A stretch of 64,000 nt of DNA from an uncultured Roseateles sp. (GTDB lineage: Bacteria; Pseudomonadota; Gammaproteobacteria; Burkholderiales; Burkholderiaceae_C): assembly GCF_945956965.1 (NCBI RefSeq), contig NZ_CAMFJS010000008.1, forward strand, positions 62,001-126,000, in the 5' to 3' direction. Shown in pieces: positions 10,749 to 54,104 of the stretch. Under the pieces are notes generated by a model. It did no database searches, had not been told where the DNA came from, and saw nothing but the letters and a program-made list of their open reading frames with translations. The position numbers were made by a program, and so were the translations under genes. Each line of letters begins with the position of its first letter. The stretch's first letter is position 1.

Positions 10749-11157
10749 CTGTGTCTCCTATTGGCGATCGTTCTTCAGGAATGTCAGAACTCGGGCTGAA
10801 AGGCTTCAGCACGCCCGCCTGGCCGCGCATGCGGGACATCTGGCGTTGAGCCCTCTGTGACAATTCATTGTTTGAGCGCGCGCAGCAATCTCCATCGTCT
10901 GATGGGACTACTGGCAATCCCCAAACGCGCGGGGAACGAGCACAGCGCAGCCGGCACCTGAGATGCCCGAGCTAAGCTGGTGTTTCATGGGGAGAGGAGA
11001 GAGCGAAGTCGGTGGGTTCCCGAGCAGTAGCAAGGCGCACACCACAGCCATAGCAGCAGCTAAGGCGAAGATATGCCTCCGCCGCTAGGTGAGCGGCGAA
11101 GGCAGGAATTGATGCTCCGAATAGCGTGGCGCACCACGCCCGGAAACACCCGCGCCG
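10749..11157. other. Promoter-containing intergenic region
   Basis: These 409 bp separate the DUF1329 gene from the end of the acyl-CoA synthetase gene. Apart from the palindrome-like site at 10893-10912 I see no gene or repeat. It should carry the promoter of the DUF1329/DUF1302 unit. Confidence 0.45.
10893..10912. promoter_or_regulatory. Degenerate copy of the regional palindromic operator
   Basis: CATCGTCT-GATG-GGACTACT matches the consensus CATCGTCC-N4-GGACGATG at 7 of 8 positions in the left half and only at the first four in the right half. It lies upstream of the DUF1329/DUF1302 unit. Confidence 0.4.
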
Positions 11158-12885
11158 TCAATGCACGGCGTATAGCTTCTTCAAGGCGGACTTGAGCATC
11201 TTGCCGGCGGGATTGCGCGGCAACTGTTCGGTGCGCAGGTGCACGGCAGCAGGCACTTTGTACGCAGCCAAGCGCTCGCGCACATGCTGCTGGACGCTCA
11301 CAGCATCAAGTTCCCAGCCAGGCTTGATCACCAGCACCGCAACGACCGCTTCACCGGTCAGCTCATCGGCTTGACCGAACACCGCCGCCTCTTCGATCGC
11401 CGCATGCTGCAGCAAACAGGACTCGACTTCGGCGGCGGAAATCTTCTCGCCCGCACGATTGATCACATCCTTGATGCGATCCACAACGCGCAGATAGCCG
11501 TCGGCATCGAGCACACCGATGTCCCCGGTGCGCAGCCAGCCGCCACGCAGCGCGGCCTCAGCGCCTTCGGGCTGATTCAAATACCCCTGCATCACGCTCA
11601 CGCCGCGCAGCCAGATTTCGCCTGGCTCCCCAACAGGCATAGGCTGGCCATCGAAGTCTGCAATGCGCAGGTCGATGATGGGCGAGACCAAGCCGGAAGC
11701 CTCGGGACGCGAAGCAAACAAACGGCCCGAGGCGGCGGCACCGACGCCGTTGCTTTCCGTCATGCCAAAACCAATGCCGGACATGGAGTCGCGCTGCAAA
11801 GACAGCACCGCATCGATCAGCGACTGCGGCAAGCCGGCGCCGCCAAAGCCCACGCCGCCCAAGCAGCCGTCCCGGGCCACTTCGGCAAAGCTCGGCTGAG
11901 CCAGCAGCTGCCCCACCATGGCCGGCGCGCCATTGAACTGCGTAATCTTCTCCGCCTGCATCAGGGCAAGCGCGCTGACTGGCTCCCAGCGCCGCATGAA
12001 GACCAAGCGCCGCCCGTGTCGCAGCGCGGTCAGCAACTGCGCATGCAAGCCGCTGACGTGGAACAAGGGCACGGCCGTCAGGGTGGTTGGCTGCAGGCCA
12101 CGGGCCATCATCTTCGCCACGATCTCGGGCGAGGTCATGGCCGAAATGGCACCGATGTAATCAATATTGAACAGAGCTTGGCAGACCGAGCGGTGACTGG
12201 ACAAGACACCCTTGGCCTGGCTGGAAGCCCCCGAGGTGAACAAGATCAAGGCCAAGTCATCGGGCTGGACAGCAAACGGCTGCAAGGCGGGCGCGTTGGC
12301 AGCGGCCGTCATCAGCTGCCAGTCGGTCGCACCGGCCCCTGCCGAAGCGGCAGGGGCATCCACCACCAAGGCACGGCAACGCAGCGCAGCCAGGTCCGCG
12401 CCCACATGGGCGTGGCGCTCGGCATCGCAGATGAGCCAAGCGGGCTGCACATCACGCAGATTCGCCAACAACTCGTCACGCAACCCAAAGCTATTGAGCG
12501 GCGCAGGCACCGCACCGGCCAGCACAGTGGCCACAAAAGCCACCGCCCATTCGGGGCGATTGCGCATGGCAATGGCCACACGCGCCCCGGGCACCAGACC
12601 TTGCTGCTGAAGTCGGGCAGCCAGTGCATCGGCGGCAGCGAAGAAGCGCTCAAAGGTCCAACGCTCGCCCTCATAGACGATGAACTCACGCGCGGCATGT
12701 GCACGACCGGCTTGGATCAATGCGGGCAAATCGGTGAACGCATTCTTGTAGACGGAAAAGCGCTGGCCCGCGACATCCAGTTGCTGCAGTTCGAAGGGGG
12801 CGCCGGGCCCCGTCAGCTGCGCGCGCATGCCCGCCGCCTGGGCCGCCAATGAGGTCGTGGTGGCCTGCATATTGCTATTGCTCAT
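11158..12885 (-). CDS. AMP-forming acyl-CoA synthetase (candidate steroid side-chain CoA ligase)
   Basis: This 575-residue ANL-superfamily enzyme should form an acyl-adenylate and then an acyl-CoA thioester. The core motifs are in order: the P-loop-like FTSGASSQAKG (about 215), GFGMTESNG (about 370), RTGDIG (about 450), RVVDRIKDVINRAGEKIS (about 465) and the C-terminal LPRNPAGKMLK with its catalytic Lys (about 560). The P-loop Ala-Ser-Ser replaces the usual Thr-Thr-Gly, a mild variation. It is the last gene of the side-chain operon, 3 bp after the preceding dehydrogenase. A steroid carboxylic acid is the likely substrate from context; this is inference. Confidence 0.85.
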   Translation of the reverse strand: MSNSNMQATTTSLAAQAAGMRAQLTGPGAPFELQQLDVAGQRFSVYKNAFTDLPALIQAGRAHAAREFIVYEGERWTFERFFAAADALAARLQQQGLVPGARVAIAMRNRPEWAVAFVATVLAGAVPAPLNSFGLRDELLANLRDVQPAWLICDAERHAHVGADLAALRCRALVVDAPAASAGAGATDWQLMTAAANAPALQPFAVQPDDLALILFTSGASSQAKGVLSSHRSVCQALFNIDYIGAISAMTSPEIVAKMMARGLQPTTLTAVPLFHVSGLHAQLLTALRHGRRLVFMRRWEPVSALALMQAEKITQFNGAPAMVGQLLAQPSFAEVARDGCLGGVGFGGAGLPQSLIDAVLSLQRDSMSGIGFGMTESNGVGAAASGRLFASRPEASGLVSPIIDLRIADFDGQPMPVGEPGEIWLRGVSVMQGYLNQPEGAEAALRGGWLRTGDIGVLDADGYLRVVDRIKDVINRAGEKISAAEVESCLLQHAAIEEAAVFGQADELTGEAVVAVLVIKPGWELDAVSVQQHVRERLAAYKVPAAVHLRTEQLPRNPAGKMLKSALKKLYAVH

Positions 12886-12888
12886 GAC

Positions 12889-14028: not shown

Positions 14029-14048
14029 GGTCAGTGTCCCTCGATCTC

Positions 14049-15239: not shown

Positions 15240-15252
15240 TGAATATGTCTCC

Positions 15253-16320: not shown

Positions 16321-16336
16321 AGGGATGTCGCCCGCC

Positions 16337-23188: not shown

Positions 23189-23986
23189 TCAAGACTTGTC
23201 CGTGGGCTTGGCCGCGGACATGAATGCAGGCCGTTCACCGCCGCCATGCAGCAGCAGATTGCTGCCGCTCATATAGGACGCTCGCGGCGAGGCCACGTAG
23301 AGGCAGGCTTGGGCGATGTCGGCCGGCTCGGCCAAGCGGCCAGCGGGAATGGAGGCGGCCACCGCAGTGATGCCAGCCTCATTGCCAAAGTGCAGATGCG
23401 ACTGCTCGGTTCGCACCAGGCCCGGGCTCACCGCCACGACGCGCACCTTAGGTGCCCACTCCACCGCTAGCGAGCCGGTCAGGCTCAGCACAGCCGCCTT
23501 CGCCGCGCCATAGGCTGCCGTTCCTGGCGAAGGCCGCAGCGCGCTGATGCTGCCGATATTGACGATCACGCCGCCCTCGTCTTGCTGCTGCATGACCGCA
23601 TTGGCGGCTTGAGCAGCATGCAAGGTGGCGAAGAGATTCAGACGCAGCACGCCTTCATGGAAGCGCGGCGACACCGTGGCCGCTTCCACCTCGGGCGCAC
23701 CACCGGCGTTATTGACCAGTACATCCAGCCGGCCATGTCGACGCACAACCTCCGCCACCATGGCACGCACGGCCTCGGCCTCGCGCACATCACAGCTCAG
23801 AAACTCGGCCTGGCGCATCACGCCGGCATCCATCACCGCAGGCAGCTCCAGCGGGGCATTGCGGCCGCACACGACGACGGTGGCACCTGCTGCGAGGAAG
23901 TGCTCGGCAATACCGCGACCAATGCCTTTGGTGCCGCCGGTGACCAGCACCACACGTTGCGCATACTCTTGAAAATTCGGGTTCAT
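23189..23986 (-). CDS. Short-chain dehydrogenase/reductase
   Basis: This 265-residue classical SDR has the cofactor motif TGGTKGIG (about 17), NNAGG (about 95), the catalytic Ser in GSIS and YGAAK (about 160). The start at 23986 (MNPNFQEYAQ) was preferred over an upstream frame extension that overlaps the promoter palindrome. It is the first gene of the long side-chain operon, close behind the operator-like site at 24020-24039. A hydroxysteroid or 3-hydroxyacyl-CoA substrate is likely from context, but which one is open. Confidence 0.83.
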   Translation of the reverse strand: MNPNFQEYAQRVVLVTGGTKGIGRGIAEHFLAAGATVVVCGRNAPLELPAVMDAGVMRQAEFLSCDVREAEAVRAMVAEVVRRHGRLDVLVNNAGGAPEVEAATVSPRFHEGVLRLNLFATLHAAQAANAVMQQQDEGGVIVNIGSISALRPSPGTAAYGAAKAAVLSLTGSLAVEWAPKVRVVAVSPGLVRTEQSHLHFGNEAGITAVAASIPAGRLAEPADIAQACLYVASPRASYMSGSNLLLHGGGERPAFMSAAKPTDKS

Positions 23987-24019: not shown

Positions 24020-24039
24020 ATACGTCCAAAAGGACGATG
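24020..24039. promoter_or_regulatory. Copy of the regional palindromic operator, divergent promoter
   Basis: ATACGTCC-AAAA-GGACGATG has a perfect right half and five of eight matches on the left. It sits between the minus-strand side-chain operon and the plus-strand enoyl-CoA hydratase gene and could control both. Confidence 0.6.
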
Positions 24040-24116: not shown

Positions 24117-24908
24117 ATGACCCCAGCTACTGCCTGCACCGACGAGCTGCTCCTCGAAACCCCTGAAGAGGGCGTCGCCCTCGTGCGCCTGAATCGCCCC
24201 GCTGCCACCAATGCCCTGAGCCTGTCACTGCAGCAAGCCTTGTCGCACACCTTCGACGCACTCAGCCAAGACCCGGCGGTGCGCGCCATCGTGCTGACCG
24301 GCGGCGACAAAGTATTCGCGGCCGGCGGCGATATCAAAAGCATGGACGACTGCGGCCCGATCGAGATCATGCAGCGCCACACCGAACGCGTCTGGGCACC
24401 GATCGAGCGCTGCCCCAAGCCCATCATCGCGGCCGTCTGCGGCTATGCCTTCGGCGGCGGCGCGGAACTGGCCATGCATGCCGACATCATCATTGCCGGC
24501 ACCAGCGCGAGCTTTGCCCAGCCCGAGATCCGCATTGGCATCATGCCCGGCATCGGCGGCACCCAGCGCCTGGTTCGCGCGGTGGGCAAGTTCAACGCCA
24601 TGCGAATCCTGCTAACTGGCAAACCCATCGGCGCCGAAGAAGCGCGGCTGATGGGCTTGGTCAGCCAGGTGGTGGCGGATGATCAGGTGGTGGATGAAGC
24701 CATCAAGATGGCCGCGCTGATCGCCGCCATGCCACCCCTCGCCGCCCAGCAGATCAAGGAAGTGGTGCTGGCCGGCGTTGACGCTTCACTGGAAACCGCC
24801 TTGATGCTGGAGCGCAAAGCCAACCAGCTGCTGTTCGCAACCCGCGATCAGAAAGAGGGCATGCAAGCCTTCATCGAAAAGCGCCGCCCCAAGTTCGAGG
24901 GGCGCTGA
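24117..24908 (+). CDS. Enoyl-CoA hydratase
   Basis: This 263-residue crotonase-fold enzyme has both catalytic glutamates: GYAFGGGAE (about 118) and SFAQPE (about 138), followed by IGIMPGIGGTQRL. The C-terminus RDQKEGMQAFIEKRRPKF is typical of a true hydratase. It should hydrate 2-enoyl-CoA intermediates in side-chain or ring-propionate oxidation. It is transcribed away from the side-chain operon from the shared palindrome. The upstream direct repeat CGAACGAGAG (twice, about 24093-24112) has unknown meaning. It converges with ksi, with 15 bp between the stops. Confidence 0.9.
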   Translation: MTPATACTDELLLETPEEGVALVRLNRPAATNALSLSLQQALSHTFDALSQDPAVRAIVLTGGDKVFAAGGDIKSMDDCGPIEIMQRHTERVWAPIERCPKPIIAAVCGYAFGGGAELAMHADIIIAGTSASFAQPEIRIGIMPGIGGTQRLVRAVGKFNAMRILLTGKPIGAEEARLMGLVSQVVADDQVVDEAIKMAALIAAMPPLAAQQIKEVVLAGVDASLETALMLERKANQLLFATRDQKEGMQAFIEKRRPKFEGR

Positions 24909-25318: not shown

Positions 25319-26092
25319 TCAGAACTGAGTCGGCCGGCCGGCCGCGTCAATGCCGCCGTCAACGACGATTTGCGCGCCATGCACATAGCTTGCAGCCGGG
25401 CTGAACAGGAAGGACACGACCGCCGCAATCTCCTGCGCCTCGGCGCGGCGGCCCAGTGGCGGGACGAAGTTCTTGATGGCCTCGCCGAAGCGTGGATCCT
25501 TCAGGCCCTCTTGCAGCAGCGGGGTTTCGGTGGCGCCCGGCGCTACCGTATTCAAGCGCACGCCGGCCTGCCCCCAGGCCTGGGCACGCTTGCGCACCGC
25601 CACGGTCACGGCATTCTTGGAGCCCGCATAAGCCAGGTGGCCGCCGGCGGGGCCGGCTCCCATCACGATGGCATGCGCATGGGCTTCATCGCCGGCTTCC
25701 AGCGCGGCCGCGAGCGGGTTCTTGTCCCAAGGCAGATGGGCCGAGGCCACCGAGGAAATCACCACCGCCGAGGGCTGGCTGCCGCGCCGTAGCGCCGGCA
25801 GCAGCGCGTCCAGCAACTCGACCGCGCCAAAGTAGTTGACCGACACGGTCAGCGAGGCCGGATTGACCTGCGCCCCCAAGCCCGCGCACAAAAGCACCCC
25901 GTCCAGCTGACCTTCGCAGCGCGCCAGAATCTGCTCGATGGCGCTCGCGCGGCCTTGCCGGGTGGCGAGGTCGCCAATGATGTCGGCATTGCGCAGGTCA
26001 AGGCCGATGACTTGATGGCCCGCAGCCTTCAATGCCGCGGCGCAGGCCGCGCCGATGCCCGAGGCCGATCCGGTGATGAGAGTAGTTGGCAT
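25319..26092 (-). CDS. hsdA: 3alpha-hydroxysteroid dehydrogenase/carbonyl reductase
   Basis: The 257-residue SDR matches the Comamonas HsdA pattern throughout: TGSASGIG (7-14), LCAGLG (68-73), SVNYFGA, SSVASAHL with Ser114, and Tyr155-x3-Lys159. It also has the unusual 30-residue insertion before the active-site Tyr (DKNPLA...) and the ending GGIDAAGRPTQF. It interconverts 3alpha-hydroxy and 3-keto groups with NAD(H) and opens the attack on bile acids and androsterone-type steroids. ATG 26092 gives the family's exact length and has an AGGA ribosome site. Confidence 0.95.
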   Translation of the reverse strand: MPTTLITGSASGIGAACAAALKAAGHQVIGLDLRNADIIGDLATRQGRASAIEQILARCEGQLDGVLLCAGLGAQVNPASLTVSVNYFGAVELLDALLPALRRGSQPSAVVISSVASAHLPWDKNPLAAALEAGDEAHAHAIVMGAGPAGGHLAYAGSKNAVTVAVRKRAQAWGQAGVRLNTVAPGATETPLLQEGLKDPRFGEAIKNFVPPLGRRAEAQEIAAVVSFLFSPAASYVHGAQIVVDGGIDAAGRPTQF

Positions 26093-26235: not shown

Positions 26236-26255
26236 CCACATGCAAACGGACGATG
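26236..26255. promoter_or_regulatory. Copy of the regional palindromic operator, divergent promoter
   Basis: CCACATGC-AAAC-GGACGATG has a perfect right half but a poor left half. It lies between hsdA (minus) and fadH (plus), about 145 bp and 64 bp from their starts. Confidence 0.5.
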
Positions 26256-30218: not shown

Positions 30219-30238
30219 CAGCGTCCGAACGGACGATG
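30219..30238. promoter_or_regulatory. Copy of the regional palindromic operator, divergent promoter
   Basis: CAGCGTCC-GAAC-GGACGATG matches 14 of 16 consensus positions. It lies between etfB (minus) and the flavin oxidoreductase gene at 30296 (plus). Confidence 0.6.
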
Positions 30239-32434: not shown

Positions 32435-33593
32435 GTGCACTTTGCTTCAAACTCTTGGCCCGGGCGCGGCCAGCCACGCCAGCAAGGCCGGTTCTTCCAT
32501 GGGCCGGCCAAAATGAAAGCCCTGCGCCTCTTCACAGCCCATATCGCGCAGCGCCTGGGCCTGCTCGGGTGTCTCGACGCCTTCCGCCGTCACGCTCATG
32601 CCCAGGGTGTGGCCAAGCCCGATCACCATGCGCGCAATGCTATCGTCCTGCGCCATCTCACTGATGAAGCTGCGATCGATCTTGAGGCGCTGGGCTTGCA
32701 GATGACGCAGCACACTCAGGGAGGAAAAGCCGGTGCCGAAATCGTCAATGGCCACCTTGACCCCCAGCGCCGCAATCTCGCCCAGCAGGTGGCGCAGCAG
32801 CGCCAGATCGTCGGCAGCCATGGACTCGGTGATTTCAAGCTCAAGCTGCCCCGGGGGCAAGCCACTATCTTCGATGGACTTGCGCAGAACGACAATGAAA
32901 TCGGGCTCTCGGAGCTGGGCTTGCGACACATTGACGGCCATAGAAAGCTGCACGTAGCCTGCCACGCGCAGCCGCGCCAGTTGCTGGCAGGCAGAGCGAA
33001 GCACATAGGTGCCCAGCGTAGCCATCATGCCGGCCTGTTCGGCCAGTGGAATGAAGCGGTCGGGCGAGACATATTGCCCGTTGTCCTTGCGCCAGCGCAT
33101 CAGAGCCTCGATGCCGCTCGGTGAGCCATCCGACAGCTTCACCTTGGGCTGATAGACGAGGAATAGGTGATGCGCCCCGATGGCATCCCGCAGTCCCGTC
33201 AGCATGTGCGTGCGCTCTCGCACATCCTGCCCCATGCTTTGCGAGTAGAAGACCGCACTACCGCGCTGATGCAGCTTGGCCTGTTTGAGCGCCACTTGGG
33301 CATTCGACAAGAACTCGTTACCACGCCGCGTGCTGCCAGCCAGCGCGACGAGCCCAAGGCAAGCCGTCAGCCGTACCGGTTGGCTTTCAATCTCGAAGTT
33401 CTCGACCAGCAACTGGGTGAGCGCATCCGCATGCACCTGAGTGCCTGGGCCGAGCACCCCAAACACGTCATTGCCGATGCGCGCGACCGTGCAGCCCGGC
33501 AAGCCCTTGAGCAGTCGGGCCGCAATCGCTCGCAGCACCATGTCGCCATAAGCATGGCCTAGCGTGTCATTGATAGCCGAAAACTGATCCACG

Positions 33594-35187: not shown

Positions 35188-36258
35188 ACGTCCAGAAGTG
35201 CCAGCGTCAAATCCCCGCTCGCGGACTGCGCCTGATCCAGGACTTCGAGCAGCCGATTAAGATTGGGCACCTTCAGCAGTGGGTCAACATAGGCCTGATC
35301 GACCAGGCGCGCATACAGCTGAACGTTCTCGAAGCCTACGGCCATTGAGGCGCAAAAAACCTCCAACAAATGCCGATCAAGCTCATCGAGCTCACGCTGC
35401 ACTTCCACGTAGGCGGCCAAACCGCAGCCTGATTCGGAGGCAAAATAGAGCGTCAGCGTCGGTCCGAAGTGGCTGCGGCGCTCCGCGAGGCAAGCCTTGA
35501 GGGATCGCTGGATCTCAGCCACCTCAAGCTCTTCCAACGGACGCTGGATCAAGTGTTGAAAGTGCCCCGCTGCGGCAATCACCCGCGCCGACATCAAGTC
35601 GCCGGGATGCGCTTCCTGCGCGCAAATCAATCCTGCGGGCTTCACATCAAGCAAGGCACAAAGCTGCCCGACCACGCCTTGCGCGAACAACTGCATGCCG
35701 CGCAACTTGGTCAGCTCAGTGCTGGCCCGCACCACTGTTTCCAAGCCCCTGCGCATGTCTTCATGTGCGCGCATCTGCCGGTAGGCGCGCACCGCCGTTG
35801 TCAGCATTGTGTACAGGCGAATGCGGGTCAGCTCTGACTTGGTCTTGTAGTCGTTAATGTCGTAATCACGAATAGTCTCTTGCTCGGGGGCATAGCCAGG
35901 CTGCCCGGTACGCAACACGATGCGCAGGGCCTTGCGCCTGAGATCGCGCCGCACATGCTCCACTAGCTTGAGCCCCGCGTCTTCGGACTCCATCACCACA
36001 TCCAGCAGCAAGACGGCGAGGTCGTCGATTTCAACGATGCACTGCCTGGCCTCAGCAGCGGAGTGCGCATGCAGCAGTCGCAAGGATCGCCCCTCGACTT
36101 CCATTCCGCGCAAAGCAAACTCGGTGGACTGATGGACGTCCGGGTCATCATCCACCACCAGGACCAACCATTCTCTTTCACCCTGGAGTGGCAACAGGAC
36201 CGTCGCTTCGTCCTCGATGAGGATGTAGTCGTCGTCGATTGAAGGCTTGGACGTTTCG

Positions 36259-39067: not shown

Positions 39068-39856
39068 TCAGAAATTGGGCGCCTCAACGCCGCCGTCCAC
39101 GCCCAGCACCTTGCCGGTGATCCAAGTGGCGGCCGGGCTGACCAGGAAGAACACGGCAGCGGCAATGTCCTCTGGCTGACCCAGCCGCGCCATGGGCGTG
39201 CTACGGGTCATGCGCTCCAGGCGCTCGGCTGTCAGGAAGGGTGCGAGGGCGTCGGTCATGATGGTGCCGGGTTCGATCGCGTTGACGCGCAAGGTCGGGC
39301 CGAAGTCCTGTGCCAGGTTACGCGTCAGCTGGTTCAGCGCCGCCTTGGCCGCACCATAGGCGCTGAAGCTCTTTTGCGCATAGCGCGCGGCGACGGAGGA
39401 GACATTCACCACCGTGCCGCCGCCCGCCGCGCTCATGGCCGGCACGCACTTCTGCGTCAGGGCATAGGCTGGCACCACATTCCAGGCCAGCACCGCGCCG
39501 AGCTCAGCGCCACTCATCTTGCGGGGGTTGTTGGGCCCGGCACCGCCGGCGTTGTTGACCAAGATATTGATCCCGCCCAGTTCGGCCACGGTGCGAGCCA
39601 CCAGCTGATCCAAGGCCGCGTCGTCATTGACGTCGGTCGGCACCACGATGGCTTTGCGGCCCAGGGCTTGGATCTCGGCCGCAACGGCGTCCAAGTCTGC
39701 GGCTGTGCGGGCCGCCAGCGCCACATCGGCGCCGGCCCGGGCCAGCATCAATGCGCAAGCCCGGCCTATGCCGCGGCCGGCGCCGGTGACGATGGCCACC
39801 TGGCCTTGCAATGAAAACAAAGCGTCAAGGCCAGCGGGAAATACTTGAGAGCTCAT
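39068..39856 (-). CDS. Short-chain dehydrogenase, 7alpha-hydroxysteroid-dehydrogenase-like
   Basis: The 262-residue classical SDR has TGAGRGIG (about 24), LVNNAGGAGP (about 102), VSSVAA, YGAAK (about 170) and the C-terminal TIMTDAL...STPMARLGQPEDIA. Several segments (NNAGG.GP, PG.I.TDAL, TP..RLGQP.DIA) recall E. coli 7alpha-hydroxysteroid dehydrogenase, but the same pattern occurs in other SDRs. The start at 39856 (MSSQVFPAG) lacks a clear ribosome site and is chosen by domain length. It is divergent from a small membrane protein gene with a palindrome copy between them. Confidence 0.75.
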   Translation of the reverse strand: MSSQVFPAGLDALFSLQGQVAIVTGAGRGIGRACALMLARAGADVALAARTAADLDAVAAEIQALGRKAIVVPTDVNDDAALDQLVARTVAELGGINILVNNAGGAGPNNPRKMSGAELGAVLAWNVVPAYALTQKCVPAMSAAGGGTVVNVSSVAARYAQKSFSAYGAAKAALNQLTRNLAQDFGPTLRVNAIEPGTIMTDALAPFLTAERLERMTRSTPMARLGQPEDIAAAVFFLVSPAATWITGKVLGVDGGVEAPNF

Positions 39857-39942
39857 GGTCAGGGTGCTGATAGCAGCAAGGAGTAGGTGAACAAAGGAAT
39901 GAAGCAGCGAGCCCATATGCTCAGGCCGCGCCAAGGGTTTGA

Positions 39943-39962
39943 ACTCACCCAAACAGACGATG
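39943..39962. promoter_or_regulatory. Copy of the regional palindromic operator, divergent promoter
   Basis: ACTCACCC-AAAC-AGACGATG has 7 of 8 matches in the right half and a weak left half. It lies 58 bp before the small membrane protein gene and 86 bp from the SDR start. Confidence 0.45.
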
Positions 39963-40020
39963 GCAGCCACCGCTGGGGCGCTACCCTGCAGGTCCCTGAT
40001 CGCTTCACCCTGCCGACCGT

Positions 40021-40524
40021 ATGACGCCCTCTCGCTTTTTCCTCAGCCAGCAACTGATACCCGGCCTGATCAACGCCGCACTGAACGGCGGCATCGCCTG
40101 GGCGCAGCACGCCCAGGCGCCGGCCGTTGGGCTCTGGGATCGGGGCGCTTACGGGACGGACTTGCTGGCCACCGGCTTCTTGCTGCCGGCGATCAGCTGG
40201 CTGATCTTGCTGCCCCTGCTGCAGCACCAGCGCACACAGGGCAAGGCACCCAGCCTGGACGGCTTGCGGCGGCCACGTCTATTGGCCTGGATGCCGTCCT
40301 CGCGCTGGGGCGGCTGCCTAACGATTGGCTTGCTTGGCATGGTCTTGCTGGGCGGCACGGCTGCACTGGCAGCCAGCCTGCTCGGTCAACCAGCCTTCAC
40401 AGGCCCGGACTACGCCTGGCTGAAGGCGGCATATGCCGCCATCTTGACGCTCACACTGCAGCCGACCATGGTGTTTGCCGCGCTGCGCCCGGCCCACACC
40501 AAAGGCCAGCCGATCAGGGCGTGA
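40021..40524 (+). CDS. Small integral membrane protein of unknown function
   Basis: I do not recognise the family. The 167-residue product has about four hydrophobic stretches: residues 10-28, 50-68 (LLATGFLLPAISWLILLPLL), 98-122 (CLTIGLLGMVLLGGTAALAA) and 135-155. A basic loop lies between the second and third. It has no Shine-Dalgarno match close to the ATG. It is preceded by a palindrome copy and ends 11 bp inside the convergent aldehyde dehydrogenase gene. A transport or membrane-adaptation role in steroid use is possible but only from position. Confidence 0.65.
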   Translation: MTPSRFFLSQQLIPGLINAALNGGIAWAQHAQAPAVGLWDRGAYGTDLLATGFLLPAISWLILLPLLQHQRTQGKAPSLDGLRRPRLLAWMPSSRWGGCLTIGLLGMVLLGGTAALAASLLGQPAFTGPDYAWLKAAYAAILTLTLQPTMVFAALRPAHTKGQPIRA

Positions 40525-41938
40525 TCGTGCCGCGAATCATCTGAACAAAGTTGTCGTTATAGGGCGGCAGCATGCCCCACTCGCGGCGTGGGTCATGTGC
40601 GCAATGGCTGTAGACCGAGCGCGCATGGCTGAACTCCAGGAAGCCTTCACGGCCGTGATAGTGGCCCATGCCCGAGGCACCAACACCGCCAAAAGGCGCG
40701 TCATGCAAGGCCGCGTGCATGGTCACATCGTTGATGGCCACGCCGCCCGACAGGGTGTTATCCAGCACCCACTGCTGTTCCGCCGCATCCTGGCCAAAGT
40801 AGTACAGGGCCAACGGGCGCTCATCCTGGTTCAGTGCCGCCACGGCTTCAGCCAGTTGCCGGTAACTGCGCAGCACGATGGCCGGGCCAAACACCTCGTG
40901 GCAAGAGATCTCAGCTTCGGCTGGTGGATCCACCACAATGCGCAGCGGCATGCGCCGCTCAGCCACGGCCGCCTCACTGGGCCAGTCACCCGCGATCACT
41001 ACCCGGGCCCCGCGCGCGCCGGCATCGGCCACATAACTTTCGACGCGAGCGAAGTGGCGCTCATTCACCACCGGCGTCACATCGCCATTGCCGGCCATGC
41101 TGGGGTATTGCCCGGCATAGCAGGTCTGCAAACCGTCAATCAAGGCCTCGCGTTGCGACTCATGCACCCACACCACATCCGGCGAGACACAAAGCTGGCC
41201 GGAATTCAAAGCCTTGCCCACCGCGATGCGCTCAGCGGCGCTGTGGATATCAGCGCTTTGGCCAATCAGCACCGGTGACTTGCCGCCTAGCTCCAAGGTC
41301 ACCGGCACCAGGTTCTCGGCCGCTGCCTTCATGACCAGCTTGCCCACCGCCGTGGCCCCCGTGAAGACCAGGTGATTGAAGGGCTGGTGCGCGAAGTCGC
41401 TGGCCACCTCGGGTCCGCCAAGCACGACCGCCAATTCTTCGGGCGAAAAGCTTTCAGCCACCGCAGCCGCAACGACGGCGGCGGTACGCGGCGTGATCTC
41501 GCTGGGCTTGAGGATGGCGCGATTGCCCGCCGCCAGCACACAGGCCAAGGGCGAGAACAGGGTAAACAGCGGCGCATTCCAGGTGCCAATGATGCCCACG
41601 ACACCCTTGGGCTGGTACTTGACCCAGGCGCTGGCGCCGAAATTGTCGAAGGGCGACACGCTGGCGCGCGGCTGATCCGGCATCCAGGCCTCGAAGTGGT
41701 CGCGCGCATGCTTGAGCGAAGCCAGGGAGCCGCCCACATCGTTCATCATCGAAAACACCGTGGGCCGGCCGCCGAAGTCCTCCCCCATGGCTGCGCACAA
41801 AGCATCTCTATGGCGAACCAGCATATCGATCACGCGCTGCAAGCGATCTCGGCGGGTTTGCGCGCTGACCGGACCTTCGGCACGGAATGCGGCCTGCTGC
41901 ACATCGAGCAGGGCACGGGTGGATGCTGCTGTTGTCAT
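40514..41938 (-). CDS. Aldehyde dehydrogenase
   Basis: The 474-residue NAD(P)-dependent enzyme has GIIGTWNAPLF (about 117), VTLELGGKSPVLI with the general-base Glu (about 215) and the nucleophile in NSGQLCVSPD (about 250). The overall layout resembles coniferyl-aldehyde dehydrogenases. In cholate-degrading Pseudomonas an aldehyde dehydrogenase (Sad) oxidises the C22 steroid aldehyde made by aldol cleavage of the C5 side chain. This gene could play that role, consistent with two CoA ligases in the main operon. AAGGA precedes the ATG. It is divergent from the LysR-like gene with a palindrome between. Confidence 0.88.
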   Translation of the reverse strand: MTTAASTRALLDVQQAAFRAEGPVSAQTRRDRLQRVIDMLVRHRDALCAAMGEDFGGRPTVFSMMNDVGGSLASLKHARDHFEAWMPDQPRASVSPFDNFGASAWVKYQPKGVVGIIGTWNAPLFTLFSPLACVLAAGNRAILKPSEITPRTAAVVAAAVAESFSPEELAVVLGGPEVASDFAHQPFNHLVFTGATAVGKLVMKAAAENLVPVTLELGGKSPVLIGQSADIHSAAERIAVGKALNSGQLCVSPDVVWVHESQREALIDGLQTCYAGQYPSMAGNGDVTPVVNERHFARVESYVADAGARGARVVIAGDWPSEAAVAERRMPLRIVVDPPAEAEISCHEVFGPAIVLRSYRQLAEAVAALNQDERPLALYYFGQDAAEQQWVLDNTLSGGVAINDVTMHAALHDAPFGGVGASGMGHYHGREGFLEFSHARSVYSHCAHDPRREWGMLPPYNDNFVQMIRGTITP

Positions 41939-42033: not shown

Positions 42034-42053
42034 CGTCGTCCGAAAGGACGATG
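42034..42053. promoter_or_regulatory. Copy of the regional palindromic operator, divergent promoter
   Basis: CGTCGTCC-GAAA-GGACGATG matches 14 of 16 consensus positions. It lies between the aldehyde dehydrogenase gene (minus) and the LysR-like winged-helix gene (plus), 33 bp upstream of the latter. Confidence 0.6.
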
Positions 42054-42085: not shown

Positions 42086-42466
42086 ATGCCTACGCCGCCC
42101 GTCCGCAAGCCCAGAGTCACCGCAGCCCAGGCCTGCGCCAACCACCCGCCACCCGTCCCGCTGGCCCTGCTGCGAATTCAGCATCGCTCGGCGTGGCGAT
42201 GCCTGCGCACGGCGCTCGCCTTTCCAGACTTCGCCCATCTGGCGCGGCGGCTGCATCTCTCCCATACGGAATTGCGGACCCGCCTGCAGCAGCTCGATCA
42301 ACTACTAGGCCCCCAGCAGCTGTGGCTGGACGGCGGCCAGGTCCAACTCTGCGACACCTTGCGGTGCGATGCCCTGGACTTGCTCAGTCAACCCCTACTT
42401 CTTCCCGGCGCGCTCCCAGCACGCCAGCCCACCTCGCCCGAATTGGCGCCCCCATCTCCACCATGA
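42086..42466 (+). CDS. Stand-alone LysR-like winged-helix DNA-binding protein
   Basis: The 126-residue product contains one recognisable segment, about residues 35-95: DFAHLARRLHLSHTELRTRLQQLDQLLGP..LWLDGGQVQLCDT. It has the spacing of a LysR N-terminal helix-turn-helix and wing. There is no effector-binding domain, and the last 25 residues are Pro-rich. Its TGA overlaps the ATG of the next SDR (ATGA at 42463-42466), which supports translation. It lies behind one copy of the palindrome and could autoregulate. It might instead be a decayed LysR gene, though the translational coupling argues for function. Confidence 0.6.
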   Translation: MPTPPVRKPRVTAAQACANHPPPVPLALLRIQHRSAWRCLRTALAFPDFAHLARRLHLSHTELRTRLQQLDQLLGPQQLWLDGGQVQLCDTLRCDALDLLSQPLLLPGALPARQPTSPELAPPSPP

Positions 42467-43293
42467 GCTCTCCCATTGTTTTCATCACCGGTGCCAGCCG
42501 CGGCATCGGTGCAGGCACCGCCATTCACTTTGCCCGAGCGGGATGGCGCATCGCCATCAGCGCACGCACCCAGCTTGCCGGTCAGCAACTGAGCCACCAA
42601 TTGCGCCGCCCTGATGGCAGCCTGCTCGCCGGCAGCCTGGCCCAAACGGCCGAGGCAATCCGGGCTCTGGGTGCGGAGGTCCTGGCACTGCCGATGGATT
42701 TGCTGGAACCGACTTCGCTGGACGCTGCAGCCGACGCCGTGCTGGCGCATTACGGCCGAGTAGACCTGCTGATCAACAACGCGGTCTACCAAGACCGCGA
42801 GTCCAATGCCCTGCTGGCCGAGTTGGATGACGCCGCACTGATGCGCACATTGCAAGGCAATGTCGCCGCCCCCACCCGCCTGGTGCGCCGCCTGCTTCCC
42901 GCCATGCTGGCCCAGGGCAGCGGCCAGATCATCAATGTCTGCTCCGGCGCAGGCAAGTTCGATCCACCGCTGCCGGCTGACCAGGGCGGCTGGGGCTTTG
43001 CCTATGGTGCGTCCAAGGCGGCGCTGGCTCGGCTGGCCGGCGTGATCAACCGAGAGCATGGCGACAAAGGTCTGCGCGCTTACAGCGTCAACCCCGGGCT
43101 GGTGAACACCGAGGCGGTAACGGCCACGCTCGGCGACGACGGCGCGCTGGCGCGCAAGTTCGGCGCGGTCGGCCCGGAAGCGATTGCCACCGCCCTGCTG
43201 TGGCTGGCCACCGATGCCGCTGCGCCGGCCTTGGCGCGCAGCCCGGTGATGCTGGATCTGCAGGACCTGATCAAGCAGCACAGCCTCGGCTGA
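42463..43293 (+). CDS. Short-chain dehydrogenase/reductase
   Basis: The 276-residue SDR has TGASRGIG (about 8), LINNAVYQDRES (about 105), NVCSGAGKF with the catalytic Ser and YGASK (about 178). An extra segment between the second and third strands (about 38-60, Leu/Gln/Arg rich) is a little longer than usual. The start codon overlaps the stop of the LysR-like gene. A hydroxysteroid or hydroxyacyl-CoA substrate is likely from the neighbourhood. The Rieske oxygenase gene follows after 155 bp. Confidence 0.82.
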   Translation: MSSPIVFITGASRGIGAGTAIHFARAGWRIAISARTQLAGQQLSHQLRRPDGSLLAGSLAQTAEAIRALGAEVLALPMDLLEPTSLDAAADAVLAHYGRVDLLINNAVYQDRESNALLAELDDAALMRTLQGNVAAPTRLVRRLLPAMLAQGSGQIINVCSGAGKFDPPLPADQGGWGFAYGASKAALARLAGVINREHGDKGLRAYSVNPGLVNTEAVTATLGDDGALARKFGAVGPEAIATALLWLATDAAAPALARSPVMLDLQDLIKQHSLG

Positions 43294-43364: not shown

Positions 43365-43384
43365 CATCGTCCAAACAGGGTATG
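43365..43384. promoter_or_regulatory. Copy of the regional palindromic operator upstream of the Rieske oxygenase gene
   Basis: CATCGTCC-AAAC-AGGGTATG has a perfect left half and a degenerate right half (5 of 8). It lies 64 bp before the oxygenase start and suggests a separate promoter for that gene. Confidence 0.5.
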
Positions 43385-43448: not shown

Positions 43449-44561
43449 ATGGCCACCACCAAAGACTATCGACTCGGCGAATTCACCTACCCGCGCGGCT
43501 GGTTCATGATCGCTGAAGCCTGCGAGCTGGACACGCACAAGCCCCTGGCGGTGCGCTTTTTCGGCAAAGACTTCGCGCTCTATCGCGGCCGCGCCACCGG
43601 CAAGGTCGTGCTGCTGGACGCCTACTGCCCGCATATGAAAACCCATCTGGCCGCGCCCAACACCACCAGCTATGTGGTGCTGGACGGCATGGGCACCAAT
43701 GTCGAAGGCGACGGCATTCGCTGCCCCTATCACGCCTGGCGCTTCGGCCCGGACGGCAAGTGCGATGACATCCCGTATCACGAAGGCCCCATCCCTGCCG
43801 CCGCCTGCGTGAAGAGCTGGCAAGTGGTGGAAAGCCTGGGCGCCGTCTGGGTCTGGTACGACCCCGAAGGTGGCGAGCCTGAGTGGGAGCACCCCAGCAT
43901 TCCCCAATGGAATGACCCAGCATGGGTGCACCCCAAATGGGATCACCTCGGTGTGCTGAACCAACACCCGCAGGAGTTGGTGGACAACATCTGTGACTAC
44001 GGCCATCTCAGCCCCATCCATGGCTCCACCGTGACCCGCTTCGAGAACGAGTTCAAGGGTCACTTGGCAATTCAGCGTCAGTGCGGCGGCCACCGCACGC
44101 TGGTTGGCCCCGATGGCGTGAGTGCCGACCTCCACACCATCACGATCTACCACGGCCCAGGTTGCCTGATCTCCAACCTCACCGGCATGTACGAAGGGGT
44201 GATGCTGATCACCCACACGCCCATCGACGATGGCGTGGTCAAGGTCTGGCACTCCCTGGTGGTCAAGTCGCCCAGCGGCCAGGCCGTTGCCAGCAAGACC
44301 GATACCATCGAGGCGGCGCATTTCCAGCAAATGGCCTTGACCGCATTTGTGCAAGACATGGACGTCTGGAACCACAAAGCCCCTTGCTTGAACGGCCTGT
44401 TCATTCCCAGCGATGGCGCCTTCATGAAGGCCCGCGTTTGGTACAAGCAATTCTTCAATCCGCGCGCCAAGAAGAGCGAGTATCTGGAGCAGTGCGAGGG
44501 CCTCTACGTGCCCAAGGGCATCCCGGCGTACACGCTCGAAACGGCGGACCAAGCCGGCTAA
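43449..44561 (+). CDS. Rieske non-haem iron oxygenase, KshA-like (3-ketosteroid 9alpha-hydroxylase component)
   Basis: The 370-residue protein begins with a Rieske domain: Cys60-Pro-His62 and Cys92-Pro-Tyr-His95 bind the 2Fe-2S cluster. The catalytic domain shows the facial-triad region ELVDNICDYGHLSPIHG (about 178-194). The context DAYCPHM and VWVWYDPE fits KshA, which opens ring B together with a reductase (KshB, not in the window). The gap between His62 and Cys92 is 29 residues, about 12 more than in typical KshA, because of an insertion (PNTTSYVVLDGMG). Another steroid hydroxylase of the same superfamily is therefore possible. GGAG precedes the ATG, and a strong terminator follows. Confidence 0.78.
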   Translation: MATTKDYRLGEFTYPRGWFMIAEACELDTHKPLAVRFFGKDFALYRGRATGKVVLLDAYCPHMKTHLAAPNTTSYVVLDGMGTNVEGDGIRCPYHAWRFGPDGKCDDIPYHEGPIPAAACVKSWQVVESLGAVWVWYDPEGGEPEWEHPSIPQWNDPAWVHPKWDHLGVLNQHPQELVDNICDYGHLSPIHGSTVTRFENEFKGHLAIQRQCGGHRTLVGPDGVSADLHTITIYHGPGCLISNLTGMYEGVMLITHTPIDDGVVKVWHSLVVKSPSGQAVASKTDTIEAAHFQQMALTAFVQDMDVWNHKAPCLNGLFIPSDGAFMKARVWYKQFFNPRAKKSEYLEQCEGLYVPKGIPAYTLETADQAG

Positions 44562-46890: not shown

Positions 46891-46896
46891 AGCCAA

Positions 46897-48473: not shown

Positions 48474-48574
48474 CGGGAGTTGACGCCGAGAGTCGTTCCC
48501 AAGAGTGAACGTCTTGCTAGACCGTCGCGGCCATACCGAATTGCGTGTGCCAAACTCGTACACGACAATGTTGA

Positions 48575-49318: not shown

Positions 49319-50719
49319 TCACAGAAATTCAGGCTTTATTTTGGCCGCCTCGCCGGCGAGTTGGGTCAGGCGGGCGGCCTGTCCCATCACGAAATCACGG
49401 AGTTGACCCGCGAAGGCGCGCTCACCGGCGTCGACATAGTCGTCTGCCAAAGCCTGCGCCGGCGCGTGTTGCATGACCAGCTTCGCTAGCCGCGCGGCCT
49501 CGCGTTTGAGCAGCTTTCTGTCGATGCCGCATCGCTGTGCAAAGTCCGCCACTTGGAACGCCCCCACCTCGTCCAGCGAGAAGGCATCGCCCCAGGCCAT
49601 TGCCAGTTCGTGGTCGATGTCCGGGTACTGCACCACGCTGACCAGGTCGTACCAAGGCGCAGGGTCGAGACCCTCGCGTCGAACGAAGAACGAAAAGTTC
49701 TTGCCATGCGCGTCGCTGTTGCCGATGAGGAACTGGAACAAGGCCCACCTGACCAGGGTTATGCGTGCCACGGCCTTGTTCACGGTCTGTTCCACGCGTT
49801 CGAACAACATTTCGAAGCTCACACCGTCCCGGATATTGCGGACATGCTCTGCGCCCCCCAAGTTACGCTCGTACTTGAAGCTTTCGGGCAGGTCCGAGGC
49901 CTGGCAGGCGTCGATGATGTGCAGGCGCTGCACGGTGGGCTCGTTAGCGCCCTGTCCGACACCCTGCACGACAACCCGGTCGAATCGGCGCACGACGAGT
50001 ACCGGCCGCGGCGTCCGGTAGATGCTGACGTCTGCGACGGGCAGCCCCATGCGCCGGGCCAGGGACATGCAGAAGTGTTCGTTGATGACCAGATGGGGCG
50101 TTACCTGCCGCGCGGGGTCGGGCTTGAGGATGTGTGTCGACGCCAAGGGGGGCTCGACCAGGAACAGGCGCCCACCGTCTTCCAGCGGATGGTCCAGATA
50201 GACCATCAACTTGTCCTGCACTCCCGCGATGGACATCCTGACCTTGCCATCCCAGACCGCCAGCGGCAGCTCATCGCGGTCGGCGATTCGTTGGTCCAGT
50301 TCATCGCGGGTCACTTCACGCGGCGGCTTGGCGGCGACGGCGGGTGGCACTTCGTCCGAAGGCCAGAACCGGAATGCCCCGGTGGTCTCGGTCCCTAGCG
50401 CGCTGATGAGGGCGTAGATGTTCGATTTGGAGACCCGGTAAGTCGTGGCCGCGATGTCGAGCGCGCGGCCCTCGGGCAGCAGGTTCTCCACGAAGCGTTT
50501 CACGGCGCCGGCGGCATAGCCGTCGGCCGGGGGCTGGAAAGGCAGTGCGGGCGATAGCGGAAACGCCGCCGGCGTCGCGACCCAGTCCGCGTCGTAGTCC
50601 AGCGACCACCGGTCGTTCATGGGCTCGTAGCCCAGCGTCGCCACCTTCTGGTCGTCCGCCCAGAGCTTGAGAGCATGCGAACTCGGTGCGTCGGTCAATG
50701 TGCCGGTTGCCGAACTCAT
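49319..50719 (-). CDS. hipA: HipA-type serine/threonine kinase toxin
   Basis: The 466-residue toxin has the HipA N-terminal subdomain (about 15-115), the ATP-loop segment SIAGVQDKL (about 168) and the catalytic segment FLIGNSDAHGKNFSFF (about 335), then the metal-binding YDLVS. In E. coli HipA phosphorylates glutamyl-tRNA synthetase and blocks growth; other branches have other targets. Its ATG overlaps the hipB stop by 4 bp (ATGA). It is complete. Confidence 0.92.
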   Translation of the reverse strand: MSSATGTLTDAPSSHALKLWADDQKVATLGYEPMNDRWSLDYDADWVATPAAFPLSPALPFQPPADGYAAGAVKRFVENLLPEGRALDIAATTYRVSKSNIYALISALGTETTGAFRFWPSDEVPPAVAAKPPREVTRDELDQRIADRDELPLAVWDGKVRMSIAGVQDKLMVYLDHPLEDGGRLFLVEPPLASTHILKPDPARQVTPHLVINEHFCMSLARRMGLPVADVSIYRTPRPVLVVRRFDRVVVQGVGQGANEPTVQRLHIIDACQASDLPESFKYERNLGGAEHVRNIRDGVSFEMLFERVEQTVNKAVARITLVRWALFQFLIGNSDAHGKNFSFFVRREGLDPAPWYDLVSVVQYPDIDHELAMAWGDAFSLDEVGAFQVADFAQRCGIDRKLLKREAARLAKLVMQHAPAQALADDYVDAGERAFAGQLRDFVMGQAARLTQLAGEAAKIKPEFL

Positions 50720-51593: not shown

Positions 51594-51841
51594 AGCCGGC
51601 GGCGGGGTGTCGGGAGCTACTCGGTCGAGGTCATAGTCAGCTTGGAATGCCGATGGTGATTGCGAGGCTGGCCCTTGCAGCTCAACGCCGCGGGTTTTTC
51701 AACGGGGGCTTAGATGCGCCGATTGGAAGGCAGCTTCAGCGCAGCGAATTCAGAACAACGAAGGCCAGTTCAGGGTCGATAGAGTGAATTGATTCCTACA
51801 GGGCCAGCACCCGCTTTGGGCACGAAGCTGCCCGTTGGAAC

Positions 51842-52567: not shown

Positions 52568-52695
52568 GATTTCGTGAGGGGTGAAGATGAAAAATTAGTG
52601 GGTGTCAGTTGTGCGCGGTCCTTGTGCCAGACCCCGACTGCGAATTCACACGCTGGCAGGCAAGGCCTAACGCAAAGGCTGTTGCTGTTGTCCGC

Positions 52696-54051
52696 TCATG
52701 CCTGCACCCGCAGCGCAGCATCTGCGCGGGCGTGCCGCAAGGCGGGCCCATAGCTACGCATTGCCATCACAAAAGCCAGCGCGCCCGGCAGCAAGGTCAG
52801 CACCATCAGCACCAAGGCCCAACGCAGGCCGTCGCCGGGGCCGCTGAGCGCCAGCGTGCGAGTGAGCATGTCGCTGAGCCAGCCGGCGGCAATTGGCCCC
52901 AGGCCATTGCCGATCAAGGCGCCAGTTAACAGAATCAGCGCGCTGGCGGTGGCGCGGCGCGCCGGCCCAACCACCAGACTCAAGGCGGCGAACACCGGCG
53001 CCACCCACCAGATCACAAAAAAGGCATAGGCCCAGATCAGCAGCCCTGCCAAGAGCAAGGGGCCGGGCGGCAGCAGCAGATAGGCCAGGCCACACGGTGT
53101 GGCCAACAACAGGCCCAGCGCCGGCACGCCGATCTGCCAGCGCGGGTCGCGGCGGGCCAGGCGGTCGGTCAGCGCGCCGGAGCACAAGCCACCCAGCACC
53201 GAGACCAAGGCCGCGCCGGCCGACACCATGCCCGCCTGCGCCAGGCTCAGGCCATGGCGGCGCACCAGCAGCGAGAAATTCCAGGTGCCGAAGCCATAGC
53301 CGGCCAGAAAGGCGCAGGCTGCGCCCAGCAATAGCCAACGCGTCAGCGGCAAGGCCAGCAGCTCGCGCACCGCGCCCGGCTGCTGGCCGGCCCGCCCTGC
53401 GTTCGACGCGTCACTAGCTGACTGCGGCTCCGCCACGCTCAAGCGCAACAAAAGCGCAAGCGCGATGGAGCTGGCACCCACAATGGCCAGGGTCCAACGC
53501 CAACCCCACTGCTGCGCAATCCAGGCGCCCAGCAACAAGGCCAAGAGCGCGCCCAGGCTGGAGCCGGTGCCAAACACACTCAGCACCCGGGAGCGCTGTT
53601 CAACCGGGTAAAGCTCGGCCAACAAAGCCATCGAAGCCGGGCCTGCGCCAGCATCGCTGACGGCGCCGCCGCAGCGCGAAAGCATCAAGCTCCAAAAGCC
53701 CATGGCGGCCGCCCCGGTGGCCGCCAACAAGCCGCCCAGGCTGCGGCAAGCGACGATCAAGCGGCGATGGCGGCCACGATCAGCCAAGCGCCCCAAGGGA
53801 ACGCCGAGCATGGCAAAGCTGAGCGCAAAGCCCAGGCCGGTGATCAGGCCAATTTGCAAATCGCTGAGGCCAAACTCCGCCTTCACCGGCTGAATCAACA
53901 CGGCCAGGATTTGACGGTCCATGAAGGCGACGGCCGACATCAAGGTCAGCAGCGCCAAGGTGTAGTGCGATTGGGCTTGCTGTTGCAGCTGCGGTCGTGG
54001 AGCTAAGTGCGCCTGGCCGTTCGGCGGGGCTGTGGGTGGCGCCTGGTTCAT
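52696..54051 (-). CDS. MFS transporter
   Basis: The 451-residue permease has twelve predicted helices after a hydrophilic N-terminal tail (about 1-28). The MFS signature after helix 2 reads LGRLADRGRHRRLIVACRSLGG. AFMDRQILAVLIQPVKAEFGLSDLQIGLITG is typical of the spinster-like branch, whose members occur often in steroid- and aromatic-degrading bacteria. It is divergent from the serine hydrolase gene, with the perfect palindrome between them. Confidence 0.88.
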   Translation of the reverse strand: MNQAPPTAPPNGQAHLAPRPQLQQQAQSHYTLALLTLMSAVAFMDRQILAVLIQPVKAEFGLSDLQIGLITGLGFALSFAMLGVPLGRLADRGRHRRLIVACRSLGGLLAATGAAAMGFWSLMLSRCGGAVSDAGAGPASMALLAELYPVEQRSRVLSVFGTGSSLGALLALLLGAWIAQQWGWRWTLAIVGASSIALALLLRLSVAEPQSASDASNAGRAGQQPGAVRELLALPLTRWLLLGAACAFLAGYGFGTWNFSLLVRRHGLSLAQAGMVSAGAALVSVLGGLCSGALTDRLARRDPRWQIGVPALGLLLATPCGLAYLLLPPGPLLLAGLLIWAYAFFVIWWVAPVFAALSLVVGPARRATASALILLTGALIGNGLGPIAAGWLSDMLTRTLALSGPGDGLRWALVLMVLTLLPGALAFVMAMRSYGPALRHARADAALRVQA

Positions 54052-54084
54052 GCGCCTATCTTGGCTGCGTCACTAAGCGCACAG

Positions 54085-54104
54085 CATCGTCCGCGCGGAC
54101 GATG
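54085..54104. promoter_or_regulatory. Perfect copy of the regional palindromic operator
   Basis: CATCGTCC-GCGC-GGACGATG is a 20-bp perfect palindrome between divergent genes: the MFS transporter (start 54051) and the serine hydrolase (start 54182). It defines the consensus of the eight sites. Confidence 0.7.

What the first reader, a model, noticed from the sequence alone, without database searches (positions are those of the whole stretch)
10893..54104. A shared palindrome marks an apparently undescribed steroid regulon
Eight intergenic sites fit CATCGTCC-N4-GGACGATG: 10893, 24020, 26236, 30219, 39943, 42034, 43365 and 54085. Five are divergent promoters of steroid genes, one is upstream of the Rieske oxygenase, one is upstream of DUF1329/DUF1302, and the perfect copy is between an MFS carrier and a secreted hydrolase. 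The half facing the plus-strand gene is usually the better one. The motif differs from the actinobacterial KstR and KstR2 operators as I remember them. The pattern would tie side-chain, ring-entry, ETF, transport and hydrolase genes into one circuit.
Basis: partly seen in the sequence, partly recalled or inferred. Interest (0 to 1): 0.82.

Follow-up and report, generated by a model that had tools for sequence, protein, structure and literature searches.

The report
Shared activator site of steroid-degradation genes
A 16-letter DNA signal in front of the steroid-degradation genes of this bacterium and its steroid-eating relatives is most likely the docking site of a known but poorly understood steroid-response activator, TesR/TeiR, which makes the switch for the whole pathway directly testable.

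Summary
The palindrome and the regulon are real; the regulator is probably a known one. Refined, the site is TMGTCY-N4-RGACKA, usually with an RGACGATG half next to the gene. The 4.96 Mb genome holds 13 exact copies, all on two contigs (3.9% of the bases) that carry steroid genes. In stretches of ten other genomes, 59 of 67 exact copies stand before orthologues of the same genes. In 69 of 72 sites a -10-like box lies at one fixed distance, give or take 1 bp, which puts the operator near -42, the place of a class II activator. The best candidate is a LuxR-type protein at C8:145567-146709, the TesR/TeiR orthologue: it occurs in the same 6 of 119 genomes (own included) as a close HsaA, and is the only regulator seen among 27 genes linked in seven clusters. 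Searches of open papers showed me no TesR operator; the primary TesR papers I tried are not held.

The parts
10893..10912 (-). Operator facing the DUF1329/DUF1302 pair (9372-10748, 7628-9349, minus strand)
   Evidence: Exact TCGTCTGATGGGACTA core; model score 27.0 with a -10 box at the expected spacing; a site in 6 of 6 orthologous promoters
24020..24039 (.). Operator between divergent SDR (23189-23986, -) and enoyl-CoA hydratase (24117-24908, +) genes
   Evidence: One base off the refined consensus; same place and same odd ATACGTCC half in 4 of 5 hydratase orthologues, ACACGTCC in the fifth; -10 boxes on both sides
26236..26255 (.). Degenerate operator (one good half) between divergent SDR (25319-26092, -) and FMN oxidoreductase (26319-28400, +) genes
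   Evidence: Model score only 3.0, but the 24-mer is identical in G123 and 21 of 24 in C. testosteroni; 2 of 5 SDR orthologues have this variant, 2 have a full site instead, 1 none
30219..30238 (.). Operator between divergent ETF genes (30133-28437, -) and FMN oxidoreductase (start probably 30296, to 32434, +)
39943..39962 (+). Doubtful operator between an SDR gene (39068-39970 as called, true start probably further in, -) and a 167-aa gene (40021-40524, +)
   Evidence: 5 mismatches; score 7.4 with a -10 match at spacing -1; no counterpart in 7 SDR orthologues; the single orthologue of the 167-aa gene has a full site elsewhere in its promoter
42034..42053 (.). Operator between divergent aldehyde dehydrogenase (40514-41938, -) and SDR (42193 or 42463 to 43293, +) genes
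   Evidence: Exact refined core; a site in 7 of 7 aldehyde dehydrogenase orthologous promoters
43365..43384 (+). Degenerate operator upstream of the KshA-like Rieske oxygenase (43449-44561, +)
   Evidence: CTCGTCCAAAYAGRGTATG-like sequence 69-78 bp before the start in 7 of 7 orthologues, each with a -10 box at the expected spacing
54085..54104 (.). Perfect palindrome between divergent MFS carrier (52696-54051, -) and beta-lactamase-fold hydrolase (54149 or 54245 to 55507, +) genes
   Evidence: 0 mismatches; a site in 3 of 6 MFS and 2 of 2 hydrolase orthologous promoters
43449..44561 (+). KshA-like Rieske oxygenase, target gene
   Evidence: PF19298 E 1.4e-56 and PF00355
28437..30133 (-). ETF alpha and beta genes, target operon
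   Evidence: PF01012 and PF00766
7628..10748 (-). DUF1302 and DUF1329 genes, target operon
   Evidence: PF06980 E 4.7e-116 and PF07044 E 2.6e-108

Best explanation
The palindrome is the operator of TesR/TeiR, a LuxR-type activator with a probable PAS domain, encoded about 20 kb beyond the window (C8:145567-146709, minus strand) at the end of a tesB-to-tesR-type operon. When a steroid or an early intermediate is sensed, a TesR dimer binds TMGTCY-N4-RGACKA centred near -42, where a -35 box would lie, with its better half towards the gene, and recruits RNA polymerase to a -10 box at a fixed distance, as a class II activator. Sites in divergent promoters can serve both genes. Shown here: the sites, their concentration on the steroid contigs, their conservation in orthologous promoters, the fixed -10 spacing, and the co-occurrence and linkage of TesR. 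Inferred: binding by TesR, activation, the ligand, and the transcription start.
For: 13 of 13 exact genome copies on C8 and C42. 59 of 67 copies in stretches of ten other genomes stand within 350 bp upstream of orthologues of C8/C42 genes. An exact site 83-190 bp before HsaA in 15 of 15 examined loci with HsaA at 69% identity or more. A -10-like A-N3-T box within 1 bp of +32 in 69 of 72 sites, against 1-15 of 72 at other places tested: activator geometry. TesR orthologue in the same 6 of 119 genomes (own included) as a close HsaA and the only regulator seen among the 27 C8/C42 genes linked in all seven clusters compared. Operon order tesB...tesR as in C. testosteroni TA441 (PMC13101464, passage). 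The C. testosteroni sites stand before HsaA/HsaB and tesB orthologues, that is, at the units reported to need TesR (PMC6895838, passage). HTH residues NTARAHLR invariant in 17 of 17 orthologues. In Neisseriales and Pseudomonas a drifted palindrome with the same -10 spacing stands before HsaA.
Against: No binding or expression data. The refined pattern was first read off C8 and C42, so its count there is not fully independent. Nine of 113 genomes without a close TesR also have 7 or more exact copies, up to 13; their contexts were not examined. In C. testosteroni 5 of 12 copies lie on contigs other than the tesR contig and were not examined. 8 of 67 foreign copies have no matching gene downstream. 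In own DNA the only site near tesR (C8:145464) is downstream of it, before a TonB receptor; in Pelomonas an exact site is 48 bp before tesR but with its better half facing away. The GerE match of the own protein is just under the Pfam cut-off (23.1 against 23.5 bits) and the PAS match is weak. One cited study calls TeiR a membrane kinase (PMC6678751, passage). Regulators encoded elsewhere in the genome were not tested for co-occurrence.
Confidence: 0.84

Rival explanations
1. The operator belongs to a TetR-type repressor, as with KstR, for example the TetR gene at C8:139365-140081 inside the cluster.
For: A TetR protein is encoded within the cluster; steroid operators of actinobacteria (KstR) and of EdcR belong to TetR repressors (PMC8399759, PMC8700777, passages).
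Against: Among 119 genomes only G021 has a close match (57%); G014, G016, G017 and G034 have the sites but no match at E 1e-10. It is linked in only 1 of 7 clusters compared. The operator lies at about -42, not over the -10 box.
Confidence: 0.05
2. Another activator, encoded outside C8 and C42 or a TesR paralogue, binds the sites; TesR acts indirectly, for example as the reported sensor kinase.
For: Cited work describes TeiR as a polar membrane kinase (PMC6678751, PMC8399759, passages). The genome has 25 GerE matches, and relatives have TesR-like paralogues.
Against: TesR has a LuxR-type HTH that is its most conserved part, no obvious membrane segment (highest 19-residue hydropathy mean 1.65), and co-occurs with the sites and with HsaA. 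The own genome has no second match to TesR at E 1e-5.
Confidence: 0.1
3. The matches are chance or coding-bias similarities in a GC-rich genome.
For: The reversed control pattern occurs 15 times in the genome. The half-site plus -10 box alone has 49 matches, 35 of them off C8 and C42. The model also hits one coding place in the window.
Against: All 13 exact copies fall on 3.9% of the genome; conservation at orthologous promoters; best control score 16.3 in 400 kb, below the five strong sites.
Confidence: 0.01

Closest known systems
TesR/TeiR steroid regulon of Comamonas testosteroni
   Same: LuxR-type positive regulator at the end of the tesB operon; orthologue here 67% identical to that of C. 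testosteroni SWCO2; the C. testosteroni genome carries the same operator at the units reported as TesR-dependent
   Different: I found no published operator, promoter geometry or genome-wide target list; here the set also covers side-chain, ETF, DUF1329/1302, RND-transporter and hydrolase genes
PAS-LuxR activators PimM and CfaR of Streptomyces
   Same: LuxR HTH with (here weakly supported) PAS domain; 16-bp palindrome overlapping or next to the -35 position (PMC4380410, passages)
   Different: Operator letters differ (CTVGGGAWWTCCCBAG); they control antibiotic or phytotoxin genes
KstR and KstR2 regulons of actinobacteria
   Same: One operator family across a steroid pathway
   Different: TetR repressors; operator sequences differ (recalled); reported absent from bile-acid-degrading Proteobacteria (PMC8399759, passage)
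EdcR of Caenibius tardaugens
   Same: Steroid-responsive control through a palindrome in a proteobacterium
   Different: TetR repressor; operator TnnCnnTACnAnTnGTAnnGnnA overlapping the -10 box (PMC8700777, passages)

Membership tests
TesR/TeiR regulon | TesR orthologue in the genome, linked to steroid genes | tested here: met
   C8:145567-146709, 67% identical to a C. testosteroni protein; linked in 7 of 7 clusters
TesR/TeiR regulon | Operator at the units reported to need TesR (tesB, tesA1, tesA2) | tested here: met
   C. testosteroni SWCO2 C11:11005 between HsaA and HsaB orthologues and C11:95390 before the tesB orthologue; gene equivalences partly recalled
TesR/TeiR regulon | TesR binds the site and activates | not testable with these tools
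   Only the activator-like geometry was seen
PAS-LuxR activators (PimM type) | LuxR-type HTH plus PAS domain | tested here: inconclusive
   GerE in 17 of 17 members at E 0.01; PAS_8 in 7 and PAS in 6 of 17; own GerE 23.1 bits with cut-off 23.5
PAS-LuxR activators (PimM type) | Operator CTVGGGAWWTCCCBAG | tested here: not met
   Site is TMGTCYNNNNRGACKA; consensus from PMC4380410
KstR/KstR2 regulon | Cluster-linked TetR repressor conserved together with the operator | tested here: not met
   TetR at C8:139365 absent from four of five site-bearing relatives and linked in 1 of 7 clusters
EdcR-type control | Operator TnnCnnTACnAnTnGTAnnGnnA over the -10 box | tested here: not met
   Different letters and place

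The most novel reading that the evidence does not exclude
One soluble PAS-LuxR protein is a bacterial intracellular steroid receptor that directly drives the whole aerobic steroid pathway in beta- and gammaproteobacteria through one promoter geometry, operator at about -42. In Neisseriales and Pseudomonas the operator letters have drifted (TAATCC-AATC-AGACGATT; TACTCC-ATTC-GGATGATG) while the recognition helix and the spacing to the -10 box stayed fixed.
Probability: 0.4. Interest if true: 0.75.

Novelty: new member of a known kind. Interest (0 to 1): 0.62.

Why it matters
A review says that regulatory mechanisms in bile-acid-degrading Proteobacteria are still largely unknown (PMC8399759, passage), and cited work disagrees on whether TeiR/TesR is a DNA-binding activator or a membrane kinase. 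A precise operator, a fixed promoter geometry and a target list turn this into a short binding and reporter test. They also point to unknown steroid genes (transporters, the hydrolase) and give a promoter set for steroid sensors. A report repeated in PMC6895838, that tesR-like genes are present only in C. testosteroni strains, does not fit the 14 other genomes with a protein at 59-70% identity, only some of which are Comamonas.

Tried and rejected
TetR as regulator: rejected on distribution and promoter geometry. The 161-aa HTH protein at C8:137503-137988: linked in 1 of 7 clusters. Half-site plus -10 box as a genome-wide scanner: too unspecific, 49 matches, 10 of them at known sites. Exact-pattern counts as a classifier of genomes: rank test p 4.6e-5 but with outliers. 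Sites 32278, 36206 and 12663: matches in coding DNA. TesR profile against solved structures: 0 hits at E 0.01. Symmetric sites tied to divergent promoters: not seen (13 of 32 symmetric and 19 of 40 TAGTC-type sites are divergent). Autoregulation of tesR: suggested by a site before tesR in Pelomonas, but its better half faces away, so left open. Structure prediction of TesR was not tried, because the protein does not come from a source that the tool admits.

What was left out of counts: I examined 25 of the 79 fetched HsaA loci (L109-L127, L129-L132, L134, L169); the others were not examined. From then on, 8 of 80 exact sites without an assigned downstream gene were dropped. The -10 analysis uses the nearest gene of each site. 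The stretches of other genomes were chosen round known matches. The scan with the trained model covered C8, C42 and 400 kb of control, not the whole genome.
Full report
Observation. Scanning the rest of contig C8 and contig C42 showed a second form of the half-site, TAGTC in place of TCGTC. The combined pattern TMGTCY-N4-RGACKA has 13 exact matches in the 4,963,710-base genome, nine on C8 (171 kb, which holds the window) and four on C42 (24 kb); the reversed control pattern has 15. The pattern was first read off these two contigs, so this count alone is not independent; the tests below are.

What lies at the sites. The window encodes acyl-CoA ligases and dehydrogenases, a lipid-transfer/thiolase-type protein, a ChsH2-type protein, SDRs, two FMN oxidoreductases, ETF, an aldehyde dehydrogenase, a KshA-like Rieske oxygenase, MFS carriers, a beta-lactamase-fold hydrolase and DUF1329/DUF1302 proteins. 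C42 carries HsaA-, HsaB-, HsaD- and KstD-like genes. The end of C8 has an extradiol dioxygenase and further beta-oxidation genes. The operators therefore span side-chain and ring genes. One (C42:5908) precedes a gene pair for a BNR-repeat protein and an MMPL/Patched-like transporter with a sterol-sensing-domain match.

Conservation. Of 119 genomes (own included), six have HsaA at 73% identity or more. Their exact-site counts are 13, 14, 8, 13, 11 and 7, against a median of 2 in the other 113; nine of these 113 reach 7 or more, so counts alone do not decide. The 14 congeners without TesR have 1 to 5. Positions decide: in stretches of ten other genomes 59 of 67 exact sites lie within 350 bp upstream of an orthologue (45% identity or more) of a C8/C42 gene. 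All 15 examined loci with HsaA at 69% identity or more, among them Comamonas testosteroni, Rhodoferax lacus and Comamonas suwonensis, have an exact site 83 to 190 bp before HsaA; 10 examined loci with HsaA at 55% or less have none (the best segment of each).

Site by site. 10893: a site in 6 of 6 orthologous promoters. 24020: 5 of 5 on either side. 30219: 3 of 3 ETF and 3 of 5 oxidoreductase promoters. 42034: 7 of 7 aldehyde dehydrogenase promoters. 43365: 7 of 7, in a degenerate form. 54085: 3 of 6 MFS and 2 of 2 hydrolase promoters. 26236: 2 of 5 SDR promoters have the same odd variant, 2 a full site, 1 none. 39943: no counterpart in 7 SDR orthologues. The model trained on the 59 foreign sites gives the five strong sites scores of 17 to 27. 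In 400 kb of control DNA there are 7 hits at 11 or more, best 16.3. The window (64 kb) has 13 such hits at 7 places, one of them in a coding gene; C8:126001-171183 has 8 hits, C42 has 6 and C8:1-62000 none.

Promoter geometry. Turned towards the nearest gene, 72 sites show a nearly invariant GACGATG half next to the gene. Outside the palindrome, position +32 is A in 59, +35 is A in 45 and +36 is T in 58 of 72. An A-N3-T box within 1 bp of +32 is present in 69 of 72 sites, against 1 to 15 of 72 around the other positions tested. Taking one site per gene class, 13.4 of 19 classes have it exactly at +32 on average, at most 2.7 at any other offset tested; of the 13 own sites 9 have it exactly there. 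A -10 hexamer at +31 to +36 puts the centre of the palindrome at about -42.5. Class II activators such as LuxR bind there (recalled), and PimM and CfaR bind over or next to the -35 box (PMC4380410, passages). This is not the usual place of a KstR-like repressor. The divergent window sites 24020, 30219, 42034 and 54085 have -10-like matches on both sides, weakest on the minus side of 42034.

Regulator. The protein at C8:145567-146709 has a LuxR-type HTH at 313-366 (23.1 bits, cut-off 23.5) and a weak PAS match at 180-251. It closes a run of genes that begins upstream with the tesB-like dioxygenase, as tesR does in C. testosteroni TA441 (PMC13101464, passage), and it is 67% identical to a C. testosteroni protein. 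It occurs in exactly the six of 119 genomes that have the close HsaA. Of the C8/C42 genes, 27 have orthologues at 50% or more in all seven clusters compared; it is the only regulator seen among them, 25 having enzyme-type matches and one 258-aa protein none. The TetR protein and a 161-aa HTH protein are each linked in one cluster. The HTH stretch NTARAHLR is invariant in 17 of 17 orthologues, Pseudomonas and Neisseriales included. In those groups drifted palindromes with the -10 box at the same spacing stand before HsaA: 4 of 4 Neisseriales loci, 3 of 4 Pseudomonas loci by score and the fourth by eye. Regulators encoded elsewhere in the genome were not tested.

Known work. TesR/TeiR is reported as needed for induction of the tesB-tesR, tesA1-tesG and tesA2-ORF18 units (PMC6895838, passage). 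A study cited in PMC6678751 calls it a membrane protein with kinase activity. A TeiR-like gene of Pseudomonas stutzeri Chol1 is said to affect cholate use (PMC8399759, passage, unpublished data there). The C. testosteroni sites stand at the corresponding genes. In the listings of five searches of open papers and the passages opened I saw no TesR operator (passages). The primary papers of Pruneda-Paz 2004 and Horinouchi 2004 are not held and Gohler 2008 was not looked up, so the claim that the operator is new is limited.

Verdict. A real and conserved operator of a pathway-wide steroid regulon, most likely that of the known activator TesR. New, as far as I could search, are the operator, its fixed class II geometry, the wider target list and the wide distribution of TesR. 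The species of the window genome was not identified; its HsaA is 85% identical to that of a Rhodoferax record.

Noticed in passing
G000:C8:150674-152722 (outside the window): An exact operator (C8:151903) lies 7 bp from the called start of an acyl-CoA dehydrogenase whose domain begins at residue 40, so the true start is probably further in; a pentapeptide-repeat gene distantly like Qnr is divergent from it.
   Followed up: partly
G000:C42:2422-5828 (outside the window): An MMPL/Patched-like transporter with a sterol-sensing-domain match and a BNR-repeat protein form a pair behind an exact operator; orthologues are linked in 6 of 7 clusters.
   Followed up: partly
L217, G014:C9:16005-17141, G124:C17 and G124:C5: TesR-like paralogues (38% in three congeners; 60% and 54% in C. 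testosteroni); the one in L217 has a near-operator, CATCGTTCGAACGGACTA, upstream.
   Followed up: no
window 1-646 and 1780-2584: Large tandem repeats of period 228 and 279 bases, as of a repetitive protein gene.
   Followed up: no
window 32447-38919: An IS3-like transposase gene beside a GGDEF-EAL gene whose GGDEF match starts inside the domain, a DUF3369 protein and a multi-PAS histidine kinase, none linked in the seven clusters: probably an insertion into the steroid cluster.
   Followed up: partly
G080, G099, G068, G046: Genomes with 10-13 exact matches of the pattern; G080 has no TesR match at E 1e-5, the others none at E 1e-40; contexts unknown.
   Followed up: no
window 49319-50719: A HipA-family kinase gene between a chemotaxis receptor and the steroid genes.
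   Followed up: no
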